Below are positions 2,579 to 37,559 of a stretch of 64,000 nucleotides of DNA, in pieces (position 1 is the stretch's first letter; each line of letters starts with the position of its first letter). The notes under the pieces are model-generated. The model did no database searches. It was not told the origin of the DNA and was given only the letters and a program-made list of their open reading frames with translations. The DNA comes from Azospirillum sp. Its GTDB lineage: Bacteria; Pseudomonadota; Alphaproteobacteria; Azospirillales; Azospirillaceae. Position numbers and translations under genes: made by a program. The stretch is from assembly GCA_027486405.1 (NCBI GenBank), contig JAIXPD010000020.1, forward strand, positions 124,001 to 188,000, read 5' to 3'.

Positions 2579-2782
2579 GGCGTTTGAGGCAGGGCAATCG
2601 ATTGAACAAGGTTTTGTCGATCCGAGACAAACTTTGACACGGATTTCACGGACATTTTCCTTTTGCCAAGGACCAGGGCTTCGAAAGCTTCGCTCATTGA
2701 CAGAAATCCGTGAAATCCGTGCCAAATATTGTCAGGCATCCCCGATCTCTTTGTTCAAGCGATTGCCCAGGCGTTTGAGGCA
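2579..2782. repeat. Palindromic repeat, copy 1 (short form) with 13-bp flanking direct repeat
   Basis: The element at 2592-2769 begins GGGCAATCGATTGAACAA and ends TTGTTCAAGCGATTGCCC, near-perfect inverted ends. Inside are facing units: CACGGATTTCACGGA on the left and GAAATCCGTGAAATCCGTG on the right. A 13-bp direct repeat GGCGTTTGAGGCA lies immediately outside at 2579-2591 and 2770-2782, as expected of a target-site duplication. Compared with copies 2-4 this one lacks the ~60-bp asymmetric centre, so it is probably an internal-deletion form. It lies between the EAL-GGDEF gene and the acetyltransferase gene and carries no convincing ORF. Confidence 0.85.
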
Positions 2783-2832
2783 AAGCGTTGCCAGAGCGGC
2801 GTGACGCCGCGTAAGGTTGCAAAGACCAACCA

Positions 2833-3384
2833 ATGCCCCGGATCGTTGCGATGCTCCCGGTTCTGTACAGCGAACGGCTTGTCTTGCGGCCCCGCGCGTT
2901 GGGCGATCTGGCCCAAATTCTGGCGATGGACGCCGATCCGGCGGTGACGCGCCATGTCGGCGGCCCTCCGACGGATTGGGCGGAGTACGCCCGTCGTTTG
3001 GCGGAGCGGATCGAGGCCTGTCATCCGTCCGGGCTTGGCTATTGGTCCTTCGCGGCGCGCCGCGCGCCGGAGCAATTTCTCGGCTGGGCGTCGCTGGTCC
3101 CTTATGAGGGGGAGGTGGAGATCGGTTGGCGGCTTGTCCCGACCGTCTGGGGGCAGGGCTTCGCGACGGAGGCGGCGACGCGGTTGTTGCGCCACGCCTT
3201 TGCCGAATTGGGGCTTGCGCGGGTGATCGCCACCATCGCGCCGGGCAATGATCGCTCGCGCCGTGTGGCCGAGCGGGCAGGCATGGGTTTCGTCGGCGCG
3301 GGCCTTTATGAGGGCGAACCGTGTATGGTCTATGAGGCGTTGGCCGCTTCCAACGCCGCTTCCAACGCCGGAGGTGGAGCGTGA
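2833..3384 (+). CDS. GNAT family N-acetyltransferase (RimJ/RimL type)
   Basis: 183 residues. The N-terminus has the YSERLVLRPRALGD strand typical of RimJ/RimL-like acetyltransferases. The acetyl-CoA pyrophosphate-binding region is the GQGFATEAATRLLRHAF stretch (Q/R-x-x-G-x-G/A type), followed by RVIATIAPGNDRSRRVAERAGMGFVG, the usual end of motif A and motif B. It probably acetylates a small amine or protein N-terminus using acetyl-CoA; the substrate is unknown. The chosen ATG has no good ribosome-binding site, and the in-frame ATG at 2851, just before LPVLYSERL, is an equally plausible start. Its stop codon is only 4 bases from the stop of the convergent transporter gene. Confidence 0.85.
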   Translation: MPRIVAMLPVLYSERLVLRPRALGDLAQILAMDADPAVTRHVGGPPTDWAEYARRLAERIEACHPSGLGYWSFAARRAPEQFLGWASLVPYEGEVEIGWRLVPTVWGQGFATEAATRLLRHAFAELGLARVIATIAPGNDRSRRVAERAGMGFVGAGLYEGEPCMVYEALAASNAASNAGGGA

Positions 3385-3388
3385 CCCG

Positions 3389-4180
3389 TCAGGCGAAATC
3401 GCGGAAGCTGTCCGCCGTGGCGCGGTCATAGCCCTGGCTGGCCCGCAGCAATTGTTGGGTGTAGGGCTGGCGGGCGTCGCCCCGGCGCAGCGCCTCCACC
3501 GTCAGCTCCTCCACCAGCCGCCCGCGATTCATCACCGCCAGCCGGTCGCACAGGTTGGCAACGACCGCCAGATTGTGGCTGACCAGCACCATGGTCAACC
3601 CATAGGTGGCGCGCAGGCGACGCAGCAGGTTGAGGATTTCCGCCTGCACCGACACGTCGAGCGCGGAGGTTGGCTCGTCCAGCAGCAGCACGCGCGGTTC
3701 CAGGATCAGGGCGCGGGCGATGGCGACGCGCTGGCGCTGGCCGCCCGACAATTGATGCGGGTAGCGGAAGCGGAAGGAGGGACCGAGTCCGACCTCGCGC
3801 AGCGCCCGGTTGATCCGGCCATCGGCGTCGTCCAACCCGTGGATGGCGACCGGCTCGGCCAGGATCCGGTCCACCGAATGGCGGGGGTGGAGCGAGCCGT
3901 AGGGATCCTGGAACACCATCTGGCAGGTCTTGAAAAAGCCCTTGCTCCGCGTCGCGGCCTGTTCGACGCCGCCGATGGACACCCGCCCGCTCCAGTCCGG
4001 GTTCAGGCCGCTGACCGCGCGCAGGACGGTGGATTTCCCCGATCCCGATTCGCCGACCAGCCCATAGCATTCGCCGTCCGCCACGCGCAGCGACACGCCA
4101 TCGACCGCCACCATCCGTTGCGCCCCATGGCCGAAGGCGACCTGAAGCGAGTCGATGCCAATCATCGGGGGAACATTCAT
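3389..4180 (-). CDS. Oligopeptide/dipeptide-type ABC transporter ATP-binding protein (OppF/DppF-like)
   Basis: 263 residues from ATG 4180. Walker A GESGSGKST, signature LSGGQRQRVAIARAL, Walker B VLLLDEPTSALD and switch His (VSHNLAVV) are all intact. This is the second ATPase of a peptide-type importer; OppF/DppF and OppD/DppD subunits pair as a heterodimer. Its start codon overlaps the stop of the upstream ATPase gene by 4 bases (ATGA), so the two are translationally coupled. It ends the minus-strand operon 4 bases from the convergent acetyltransferase gene. Peptides, nickel or glycosides are all possible cargo for this family. Confidence 0.92.
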   Translation of the reverse strand: MNVPPMIGIDSLQVAFGHGAQRMVAVDGVSLRVADGECYGLVGESGSGKSTVLRAVSGLNPDWSGRVSIGGVEQAATRSKGFFKTCQMVFQDPYGSLHPRHSVDRILAEPVAIHGLDDADGRINRALREVGLGPSFRFRYPHQLSGGQRQRVAIARALILEPRVLLLDEPTSALDVSVQAEILNLLRRLRATYGLTMVLVSHNLAVVANLCDRLAVMNRGRLVEELTVEALRRGDARQPYTQQLLRASQGYDRATADSFRDFA

Positions 4181-36471: not shown

Positions 36472-36567
36472 CGGGGATTCTCCCTCTGGGAATGGTTTGA
36501 ACCAGTTAACCCTGATATTCGACGCGGGTCCATACCCGCTGACGCGATTGACCAGAGGCGCGCTTGC

Positions 36568-37239
36568 TCAGAAATCAAGGTCCGCGTAATGGCGGGGCGG
36601 CGGGCAACCGGTGATGTTGTCGGCCAGGATGGCGCGGAAGCTGGGGCGCGATTTGATGCGGGCGTACCAGTCCTTGGCCTCCGGGTTCTTGTCCCACGGC
36701 ACATTGTCGATGTAATCGACGCAGGACAGCGCGGCGGCGGCGGCGATGTCGGCCAGGGTGAAGGTCGGACCGGCCAGCCAGGGGCGGCGTTCCGACAGGA
36801 AGGCGATGTAATCCAGGTGGTAATGGATGTTGGCCAGCCCGGCGCGGATCGCCGGGGCGAAGGGATGGCCCTGGCCCGACAACCGTTTCATCAGCTTTTC
36901 GCCGACCAGATTTTCCGTGACCTCGCGGTCGAACTTCAGCAGGAACCAGTCGGCCAGCCGCCGCACCTCCGCCCGGTGCACCACCTCGCGCGGCAGCAGT
37001 TGGGTGTTGTCGGGGTAGGCCTCTTCCAGATACTCGATCAGCGCCCAACCGCCGACGATGACCGCGCCATCCTCCTCCACCAGCACCGGAACCTCGGCGG
37101 CGGGGGTCATGCGCAGGAAGGCGTCGCGCCGTTCCCACGGGCGTTCGATCACCGGCTCGAAAGGAATGCCCTTTTCGGCCAGCGTGATGCGGGCGACGCG
37201 CGACAGCACGTTCAGCGGGTGATGGTACAGGATCCTCAT
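36568..37239 (-). CDS. fzlA: GST-like FtsZ-binding protein FzlA
   Basis: 223 residues. A glutathione S-transferase fold: thioredoxin-like N-terminus (LYHHPLNVLSRVARITLAEKGIPFEPVIERPWERRDAFLRMTPAAEVPVLVEEDG) and a helical C-terminal domain (LADIAAAAALSCVDYIDNVPWDKNPEAKDWYARIKSRPSFRAIL). The ERPWERR segment and the terminal PPRHYADLDF tail match the alphaproteobacterial FzlA group, which binds FtsZ filaments and promotes constriction rather than acting as a classical transferase. The family call rests on remembered homologues, so plain GST remains possible. Repeat copy 4 lies upstream. Confidence 0.82.
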   Translation of the reverse strand: MRILYHHPLNVLSRVARITLAEKGIPFEPVIERPWERRDAFLRMTPAAEVPVLVEEDGAVIVGGWALIEYLEEAYPDNTQLLPREVVHRAEVRRLADWFLLKFDREVTENLVGEKLMKRLSGQGHPFAPAIRAGLANIHYHLDYIAFLSERRPWLAGPTFTLADIAAAAALSCVDYIDNVPWDKNPEAKDWYARIKSRPSFRAILADNITGCPPPRHYADLDF

Positions 37240-37309
37240 GGCGGGCGGACTTTAGCGCAACGCAGCAGAGGAAAACAGCCCGCGCGTGCGCCTCCCCCTT
37301 GCGGTGACA

Positions 37310-37559
37310 GGGCAATCGCTTGAACGAGCGATCATCGTCACGCAGGCAAGAATGGACACGGATTTCACGGACAAAATGAGGGATTTCACGGATTTCCGAT
37401 ATCAATCGTCTCGCACCTCCCACCTCCTGTGACGAGGTTTGTCGCAAGCTCGCAAATAGGATGGCTCTGAGACGGGTTCCGTGAAATCCGTTAGAAAATC
37501 CGTGAAATCCGTGGCAACGCTTGTTCCGGTCGGGCGCGCGATGCTTCAAGCGATTGCTT
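37310..37559 (+). repeat. Palindromic repeat, copy 4
   Basis: 250 bp. Starts GGGCAATCGCTTGAACGAGC and ends GCTTCAAGCGATTGCTT. Same orientation as copy 3; the first ~60 bases are almost identical, including ATGGACACGGATTTCACGG. The left side adds an extra unit (GGGATTTCACGGATTTCC), the centre has GTGACGAGGTTTGTCGCAAG and AATAGGATGGCTCTG, and the right units are CCGTGAAATCCG repeats. It sits in the 434-base gap between fzlA and gltB; apart from it and the gltB terminator the gap shows nothing else. Confidence 0.87.

What the first reader, a model, noticed from the sequence alone, without database searches (positions are those of the whole stretch)
2579..37559. Dispersed palindromic repeat family, four copies in 64 kb
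Four intergenic elements (2592-2769, 11298-11540, 18363-18605, 37310-37559) share terminal inverted repeats GGGCAATCGCTTGAA...TTCAAGCGATTGCCC, internal tandem units of CACGGATTT facing each other, and a conserved asymmetric centre (GTCACGAGG, TCGCAAG, GGATGGCTC). Copy 2 is inverted relative to 3 and 4, and copy 1 lacks the centre. Two copies are 243 bp, one is 250 and one is 178. They lie in gaps only, never in genes, with no ORF. Such density suggests an abundant genome-wide element, perhaps a non-autonomous mobile element or a structured-RNA/DNA element. I know of no named family with this exact plan.
Basis: partly seen in the sequence, partly recalled or inferred. Interest (0 to 1): 0.78.

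Follow-up and report, generated by a model that had tools for sequence, protein, structure and literature searches.

The report
Jumping DNA carrying nuclease-linked palindromes
The four repeats are short hitch-hiking transposons, present in roughly a hundred copies in this soil bacterium and probably moved by the enzyme of a known transposon family; their interior holds palindromic repeats that also surround a little-studied nuclease gene in many other bacteria, a link I did not find in print.

Summary
The four copies belong to a family of roughly 130 loci (an estimate) in this Azospirillum genome: 188 exact 14-mer ends, 0 for the reversed control. They are MITEs: 17-bp ends CAGGGCAATCGCTTGAA / TTCAAGCGATTGCCCTG, target duplications of usually 10 bp (12 of 30 copies, 0 of 870 mispaired flanks), and empty sites in congeners for three of the four window copies. 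A congener carries a 1,222-bp insertion sequence with both 17-bp ends identical and an ISAs1-family transposase: the likely mover. No intact copy was found in the window's own assembly.

The interior is more surprising. Its inward-facing CACGGATTT arrays also flank a GxxExxY (PDDEXK_3 nuclease) gene in this genome; a second GxxExxY gene there has CACAGAT arrays, like another palindrome at 16153-16353. Among 77 GxxExxY loci from many phyla, inward CACRGAT arrays stand on both sides in 17 (looser CRCRGAT: 27), outward in 1, in 0 of 273 shifted windows. Between cobS- and cobT-like genes, 19 sites with the gene keep 5-9 units; 11 without keep 0-1. What the nuclease does with the arrays is inferred, not shown.

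The parts
2590..2770 (+). MITE copy 1 (181 bp), left end CAGGGCAATCGATTGAA, right end TTCAAGCGATTGCCCAG, short variant centre
   Evidence: empty site in congener G012
2580..2589 (.). left copy of the 10-bp target duplication GCGTTTGAGG of copy 1
2771..2780 (.). right copy of the 10-bp target duplication of copy 1
   Evidence: a single related copy at the empty site
11296..11542 (-). MITE copy 2 (247 bp), inverted; 6-bp remnant duplication GCGGTG at 11290-11295 and 11543-11548
   Evidence: absent from congener G017
18361..18607 (+). MITE copy 3 (247 bp), next to a TGA that ends the gene before it (by eye); duplication only partial
   Evidence: absent from congener G017, adjoining 120-bp flanks 95% and 98% identical
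37308..37561 (+). MITE copy 4 (254 bp), between a glutathione-transferase-like gene and a glutamate-synthase-like gene (by eye); no clear target duplication, empty site not tested
2638..2721 (.). core of copy 1: inward-facing CACGGATTTCACGGA units
11344..11493 (.). core of copy 2: inward-facing CACGGATTT units
18410..18559 (.). core of copy 3: inward-facing CACGGATTT units
37357..37513 (.). core of copy 4: inward-facing CACGGATTT units
16153..16353 (.). second, different palindrome: inward-facing CACAGATGAA units (35-nt arms, 97% complementary); same unit type as the second GxxExxY gene of this genome (outside the window). Related by unit plan, not a MITE copy

Best explanation
[quoted passage not shown] Shown: 17-bp terminal inverted repeats starting CAGGG; target duplications, mostly of 10 bp, directly next to those ends in 12 of 30 copies; empty sites in congeners; a complete insertion sequence in a congener with the same 17 bp at both ends and an ISAs1 transposase gene. 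Inferred: that this transposase, or a close relative now lost from the host or missing from its assembly, binds and moves the short copies. The interior is a second, separate thing: an inward-facing array of CACGGATTT units of the kind that flanks GxxExxY (PDDEXK_3) nuclease genes. Shown: the same 15-mer unit pair on both sides of a GxxExxY gene in this genome; the same plan, with other units, around a good part of GxxExxY genes across phyla; arms with many units where the gene is present and nearly none where it is missing at one conserved site. Inferred: that the GxxExxY protein recognises the arrays and keeps them alike by cutting and repair, and that the MITE spreads a captured array.
For: Copy number: 40 nearly full-length matches scored out of 187 first-look candidates; 188 exact ends against 0 reversed; the 100 listed ends fall into 71 clusters, 28 with both ends exact, 17 of the 27 simple spans being 240-243 bp. 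Target duplication: 12 of 30 scored copies (eight of 10 bp, two of 11, one of 9, one of 12) against 0 of 870 mispaired flanks. Empty sites: copy 1 in G012, copies 2 and 3 in G017. Partner: L105:404-1625 (G012), both 17-bp ends with 0 mismatches; its 372-aa product scores 384 bits against NF033564 ISAs1 (cut-off 70) and matches PF13808 and PF01609. L107 in the same genome has the same ends, a 9-of-10 duplication and no CACGG units, so ends and core are separable. Core: GxxExxY genes L032 and L031 of the own genome lie inside CACGGAT and CACAGAT arrays. 77 loci across phyla: inward CACRGAT arrays on both sides 17 of 77, outward 1 of 77, shifted 0 of 273; with CRCRGAT, loosened. cobS-cobT site: 19 with the gene hold 5-9 units, 11 without hold 0-1. 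Genus: 25 of 25 genomes with a GxxExxY match over the cut-off have the exact unit pair, 8 of 20 without.
Against: 18 of 30 scored copies have no clear target duplication, copy 4 among them; those of copies 2 and 3 are partial, and one of 31 copies could not be scored. The empty site of copy 2 is not a clean single-copy target. The own assembly (96 contigs, 93.7% complete) holds no intact insertion sequence with these ends: its ISAs1 pieces are 67-73% alike to the partner over short stretches. The full-length partner locus in G012 shows no target duplication, and its two copies share the same flanks. For the core: 8 of 20 congeners without GxxExxY still carry unit pairs, up to 21 in one; with the motif taken from the window 60 of 77 GxxExxY loci lack arrays on both sides, with the widest, post hoc motif 32 of 77, where outward arrays also rise to 7; in the window's own family 8 of 31 loci fall below the threshold; the gene/unit correlations are not corrected for shared ancestry, and the gene-less cobS-cobT sites may go back to few losses; no binding or cutting was tested.
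Confidence: 0.85

Rival explanations
1. REP/RAYT-like repeats: a tyrosine (Y1, IS200/IS605-like) transposase spreads the palindromes as single-stranded hairpins.
For: Intergenic, palindromic, abundant; strong fold of copy 3.
Against: Target-site duplications and terminal inverted repeats shared with a DDE insertion sequence; that IS200/IS605-type insertion leaves no such duplication is recalled. No Y1 transposase was searched for.
Confidence: 0.04
2. The GxxExxY nuclease itself moves the whole element, ends included.
For: The same inner units flank GxxExxY genes; unit presence follows gene presence in the genus.
Against: Seven GxxExxY cores at cobS-cobT show no CAGGG ends (best 8-10 of 17, null mean about 9); a short element with the same ends but no core exists (L107); the matching 1.2-kb element carries an ISAs1 transposase, not GxxExxY.
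Confidence: 0.05
3. Selected regulatory, RNA or coding elements (terminators, nucleoid-protein sites, read-through inserts), not mobile DNA; repeats of a like plan in Geobacter were read as global-regulator sites.
For: Intergenic position; strong fold; one frame is stop-free through 21 or 22 of 27 copies; the CACAGAT palindrome downstream of a cyclodeaminase-like gene keeps its arms in four species while its centre diverges; PMC2700814 proposes regulator binding for paired tandem arrays on opposite strands (passages).
Against: Three of four window copies are presence/absence insertions between species, and 12 of 30 copies have duplications; no Rfam match over threshold. Some copies may still have acquired functions.
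Confidence: 0.05
4. For the core only: the arrays are operator sites by which GxxExxY regulates its own gene, and the dispersed ones are gene-less leftovers without function.
For: Arms border the gene closely; nine gene-less cobS-cobT sites keep decayed remnants of the core ends.
Against: Dispersed cores keep well-formed arms on both sides at many sites; inward symmetry on both sides of the gene is not needed for an operator.
Confidence: 0.25

Closest known systems
MITEs derived from bacterial insertion sequences (review PMC10969869, passages seen; MITEAba12, PMC6382973, abstract start seen)
   Same: 50-500 bp, no transposase gene, ends shared with an autonomous insertion sequence, many copies. 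By that review's terms a type II MITE, likeness confined to the ends.
   Different: Its interior is a nested palindromic array of another repeat class that flanks a nuclease gene elsewhere in the genome.
ISAs1 family insertion sequences (NF033564; PF13808 + PF01609)
   Same: Ends beginning CAGGG; 1.2-kb full-length partner; ISAs1 transposase over the curated cut-off.
   Different: The window elements lack the transposase; the own-genome ISAs1 copy that could be bounded has other ends, CAGGGCCATTCAAAG / CAGGGCGATTCAGAG. That ISAs1 elements usually begin CAGGG and duplicate 8-10 bp is recalled, not tested.
GxxExxY protein family (TIGR04256 / PF13366 PDDEXK_3)
   Same: Two genes in this genome lie inside inward-facing unit arrays of the two types seen in the window.
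   Different: The passages of the two papers found that name it give no function and no repeats; the MITEs themselves carry no such gene.
Paired multicopy tandem-repeat sites of Geobacter metallireducens (PMC2700814; passages and supplementary legends seen)
   Same: Tandem 7-9-nt repeats in pairs on opposite strands at variable distance, many per genome; class 2 consensus TCTCCGTS[Y] reads, reversed, much like a CACGGAGA unit.
   Different: There read as sites for an unknown global regulator (IHF/HU suggested); no nuclease or transposon partner in the passages seen; the supplementary alignments were not read.
REP/RAYT system
   Same: Idea of a chromosomal enzyme with cognate dispersed palindromes (recalled).
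   Different: GxxExxY is a PD-(D/E)XK family with a confident model whose best PDB match is the SSO0001 structure 4ic1, not a Y1 transposase.

Membership tests
MITE | short (50-500 bp), no transposase gene | tested here: met
   181-257 bp; longest stop-free run 58-90 codons in 29 copies, far short of a transposase
MITE | terminal inverted repeats | tested here: met
   CAGGGCAATCGCTTGAA / TTCAAGCGATTGCCCTG in an alignment of 30 genome copies
MITE | target-site duplication | tested here: met
   12 of 30 against 0 of 870 control pairs
MITE | polymorphic insertion (empty sites) | tested here: met
   copies 1, 2, 3 absent in G012 or G017; copy 4 not tested
MITE | shares ends with an autonomous element | tested here: met
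   L105, 1,222 bp, 0 mismatches in both 17-bp ends, in a congener; not found intact in the own assembly
MITE | mobilised in trans | not testable with these tools
   needs a transposition assay
ISAs1-derived | partner transposase belongs to ISAs1 | tested here: met
   NF033564 384 bits, cut-off 70
ISAs1-derived | ends CAGGG, 8-10 bp duplication (recalled family traits) | tested here: met
   ends CAGGG; of the 12 clear duplications 8 are of 10 bp, 1 of 9, 2 of 11, 1 of 12
REP/RAYT (IS200/IS605-like) | insertion without target duplication (recalled) | tested here: not met
   duplications present in 12 of 30
REP/RAYT (IS200/IS605-like) | Y1 transposase gene linked to the repeat | not tested
   no search for Y1 transposases was run
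GxxExxY-array element (working name) | inward-facing tandem units | tested here: met
   for the window copies; L031/L032
GxxExxY-array element (working name) | GxxExxY gene between the arms | tested here: not met
   the window elements are too short; the two genes of this genome lie on other contigs

The most novel reading that the evidence does not exclude
GxxExxY (PDDEXK_3) proteins and inward-facing tandem unit arrays form a so far unrecognised enzyme-repeat system of bacteria and archaea, comparable in logic to RAYT/REP: each GxxExxY paralogue recognises its own unit (CACGGATTT, CACAGATGAA, CACCAAGA and others), sits inside one array, and keeps or spreads gene-less arrays elsewhere in the chromosome. 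In this Azospirillum an ISAs1-type MITE has captured such an array and carried it to about a hundred sites.
Probability: 0.45. Interest if true: 0.85.

Novelty: new variant of a known kind. Interest (0 to 1): 0.62.

Why it matters
As a MITE family with an identified partner, the element is a new member of a known kind. The new part is its interior: it ties a class of unexplained intergenic repeats (tandem 8-10-nt units in inverted pairs) to a widespread nuclease family of unknown role. If that holds, many "miscellaneous repeats" in bacterial genomes would gain a candidate enzyme, and a simple binding or cutting test becomes possible, with matched and mismatched arrays available inside one genome.

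Tried and rejected
Rfam search of the whole window: one tRNA only. Gene-interruption test: uninformative in a G+C-rich genome. Partner insertion sequence in the own genome: the three ISAs1 matches do not carry these ends as far as their contigs allow (they lie at or near contig ends). PADLOC scan of two GxxExxY proteins: no match. PDB by sequence with the 17-protein alignment: no match. MITE in the plasmid collection: only partial matches in two A. brasilense replicons; the insertion sequence: one 70% match in a Rhizobium record. Text searches: unit sequences in no paper; GxxExxY in 2 papers (passages); PDDEXK_3 / PF13366 / TIGR04256 in 1 paper, listing only; MITE-related terms (listing), ISAs1 with MITE in 6 papers (listing), ISAs1 with Azospirillum in 3 (listing); Geobacter-type multicopy repeats (listings; PMC2700814 passages; PMC2996986 and PMC3543383 passages, no unit sequences of this kind seen); RAYT/REP/PDDEXK combination in none.

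Limits of the flank tests. In one search, 54 of 77 loci share at least 10 8-mers between left flank and reversed right flank, but so do 31 of 279 shifted windows and 81 of 1,525 cross pairs, so that score alone separates weakly. In one search only CACRGAT was fixed beforehand; CRCRGAT, CRCRRAW (39 of 77, outward 3, shifted 2 of 273) and CRCDRAW (45, 7 and 2) were chosen. In the Azospirillaceae set 23 of 31 loci reach 8 shared 8-mers against 12 of 61 shifted windows and 244 of 930 cross-locus pairs; the cross pairs are no clean control because many loci share units. It also counted 23 cores, two of which were fetched twice.
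Full report
WHAT IS THERE. Including the whole terminal repeat they are 2590-2770, 11296-11542 (inverted), 18361-18607 and 37308-37561. The unit pair and the end sequence are far above chance in the window and in the genome: 188 exact 14-mer ends and 182 exact 15-mer unit pairs, each against 0 for the reversed pattern. The host is in the genus Azospirillum: the congener G005 has a contig of 1,754,523 bases, the length of NZ_CP012915.1 of A. 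brasilense, and a match lies at the same position. This is inference from length and position. A blast search scored 40 of 187 candidates in the own genome, all 40 matching over nearly the full length. The 100 listed ends fall into 71 clusters; scaled to 188 ends this gives about 130 loci, an estimate.

IT IS A TRANSPOSABLE ELEMENT. An alignment of 30 genome copies shows sharp borders at CAGGG...CCCTG. Of 31 copies submitted (29 genome loci, which include window copies 3 and 4, plus window copies 1 and 2; L025 was left out because it lies at a contig end), 30 had both ends located. Twelve of these reach the duplication threshold (eight of 10 bp, two of 11, one of 9, one of 12) against 0 of 870 mispaired flanks. 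Window copy 1 has a perfect 10-bp duplication. Congeners give the empty sites: copy 3 is missing in G017, where the adjoining flanks are 95% and 98% identical; copy 2 is missing in G017 (97% and 89%), though the target there has changed; copy 1 is missing in G012 (85% and 92%), where a single related copy of the target stands. Copy 4 was not tested.

THE PARTNER. Exact ends occur in 14 of 45 genomes of the genus: the own genome 188, G017 15, G012 12, the others 1-5. In G012 two pairs of ends lie about 1.2 kb apart. One of them, L105:404-1625, is a 1,222-bp insertion sequence with 0 mismatches in both 17-bp ends. Its 372-aa product is an ISAs1 transposase (384 bits, cut-off 70; PF13808 and PF01609). 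In the second copy the frame is broken, and both copies share the same flanks without an evident duplication. G012 also holds a 183-bp element with the same ends, a 9-of-10 duplication and no CACGG units (L107). So the ends belong to an ISAs1-type system that moves more than one cargo. In the own assembly only diverged ISAs1 pieces were found. At least 12 contig ends lie close to a MITE end (from the listed positions and six known contig lengths), so a hidden partner is possible.

THE INTERIOR IS A SECOND SYSTEM. The genome has two GxxExxY genes (TIGR04256 / PF13366). L032 lies between inward-facing CACGGATTTCACGGA units, the units of the MITE core. L031 lies between CACAGATGAA-type units, those of another palindrome in the window at 16153-16353. 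In the family, 37 of 82 genomes have a GxxExxY match, 35 over the cut-off. Units differ by locus: CACGGATTT between cobS- and cobT-like genes, CACAGATGAA near a queC-like gene, CACCAAGA / CACAAAGA around a protein subgroup with an NFN motif (gene names by eye). By shared 8-mers 23 of 31 loci pass, against 12 of 61 shifted windows. Of the 8 that fail, L038, L040, L042, L046 and L063 still show arms by eye, while L048, L049 and L055 show none clear on both sides; L036 passes although by eye its array lies on one side only.

BEYOND THE GENUS. A scan of one genome per species gave 80 GxxExxY loci, kept from 559 relatives, from Proteobacteria, Planctomycetota, Acidobacteria, Bacteroidota, Fibrobacter, Treponema, Verrucomicrobia and, in two metagenome bins, Methanosarcinales. 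Of 77 with enough flank, tandem CACRGAT units (the motif taken from the window's own two families) face inward on both sides in 17, outward in 1, and in 0 of 273 shifted windows. With CRCRGAT, loosened, the numbers are 27, 1 and 0; with the loosest motif, CRCDRAW, 45, 7 and 2. The whole-flank score points the same way but less cleanly.

GENE AND ARMS GO TOGETHER. At the cobS-cobT site 19 sites with the gene hold 5-9 unit copies in the arms. Eleven sites without it hold 0 or 1; nine of these keep a short decayed remnant of the core ends and two hold other DNA (these are the 30 of 45 genomes whose loci were returned, the other 15 were not examined). Across the genus 25 of 25 genomes with a GxxExxY match over the cut-off have the exact unit pair (median 10), but only 8 of 20 without (median 0; G044 with a sub-threshold match is counted as without), Fisher p 4e-6. 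These counts take any paralogue, are not corrected for relatedness, and 8 gene-less genomes do have units, G033 with 21 and G014 with 14. The CACAGAT palindrome downstream of a cyclodeaminase-like gene is at the same place in four species; its arms are conserved, including a paired change in G012, while the centre has diverged. That speaks for upkeep of the arms by selection or gene conversion rather than recent insertion there.

CORE AND ENDS WERE COMBINED LONG AGO. One search lists 23 gene-less CACGGATTT cores from congeners, of which two were fetched twice: 21 distinct sites. Twelve of the 21 have at least one recognisable MITE end (at least 12 of 17; the 99th percentile of shuffles is 11-12), 4 have two, 9 have none. 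Four show 9 or 10 of 10 matching bases next to the ends, with offsets of up to 2 allowed (L100, L113, L115, L122; L113 and L122 look like one orthologous site). Seven GxxExxY cores show no MITE end (best 8-10 of 17). So one lineage of MITEs probably captured a core before these species split; this is inference.

THE NUCLEASE. The GxxExxY alignment keeps E22, D61, E71, K73 and Q85 invariant in 17 proteins, as expected of an active PD-(D/E)XK nuclease. The predicted model is confident (pLDDT 96.5). Only 3 PDB chains match at E 0.001 or better, all SSO0001 (4ic1, best E 2.8e-4, TM 0.53-0.60); weaker ones include an alkaline exonuclease, AddAB, MGME1 and, lower, a Holliday junction resolvase. That SSO0001 is a Cas4 protein is recalled.

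MECHANISM. Most likely the transposase of an ISAs1 element cuts and joins at CAGGG ends, staggered to give 10-bp duplications, and moves the short copies in trans (about 0.9 likely). The inner arrays are probably recognition sites of a GxxExxY nuclease, kept alike by cutting and repair or conversion between arms and copies (about 0.45), and they ride along with the MITE. Whether they help the MITE is unknown. An open point is a stop-free frame through 21 or 22 of 27 copies on the strand opposite to copy 3; simple random mutation of four copies left any one frame open in at most 39% of trials. The copies are related and the model is crude, so this is a lead only.

PRIOR WORK. MITEs and ISAs1 are well known. 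Paired arrays of 7-9-nt tandem repeats on opposite strands were described in Geobacter metallireducens as presumed regulator sites (PMC2700814, passages). I found no paper that links GxxExxY to repeats; the library holds no bioRxiv preprints and few subscription papers.

VERDICT. The element is a new ISAs1-type MITE family, with an unusual interior that points to an unexplored enzyme-repeat association.

Noticed in passing
window 16153-16353: Second palindrome family (CACAGATGAA units, T/A-run borders), at the same place in four species with conserved arms and diverged centre, one paired change in G012.
   Followed up: yes
MITE copies L001-L030, strand opposite to window copy 3: One frame is stop-free end to end in 21 or 22 of 27 copies, reminiscent of read-through palindromic elements (recalled from Rickettsia); not explained.
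   Followed up: partly
L114, L121 (congeners G005, G006): CACGGATTT cores enclosed by a different outer palindrome (TTCTYGGGNGACAA...) instead of the CAGGG ends: perhaps a second carrier of the same core (by eye).
   Followed up: no
L272, L276 (G014, G035), cobS-cobT site: In two congeners the GxxExxY site is occupied by about 0.8 kb of other DNA whose first open frame looks like an AbrB-type antitoxin (by eye).
   Followed up: no
own genome contigs C4, C15, C21, C22, C24, C25, C26, C27, C29, C30, C34, C39: At least 12 contig ends lie within a few hundred bases of a MITE end: the draft assembly tends to break at these repeats.
   Followed up: partly
window 12773-13724: Long run of 15-bp periodic coding repeats of the pentapeptide-repeat kind (by eye).
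   Followed up: no
window 9166-9240: Four tandem copies of a C-rich unit of 15-16 bp.
   Followed up: no
L107 (G012:C3): 183-bp element with the same 17-bp ends but another centre: the ISAs1 ends carry other cargo too.
   Followed up: partly
L040 (G008:C11): GxxExxY gene of the NFN subgroup with an internal TAA between arrays of CACAGAGACACGGAGG type: a gene apparently decaying.
   Followed up: no
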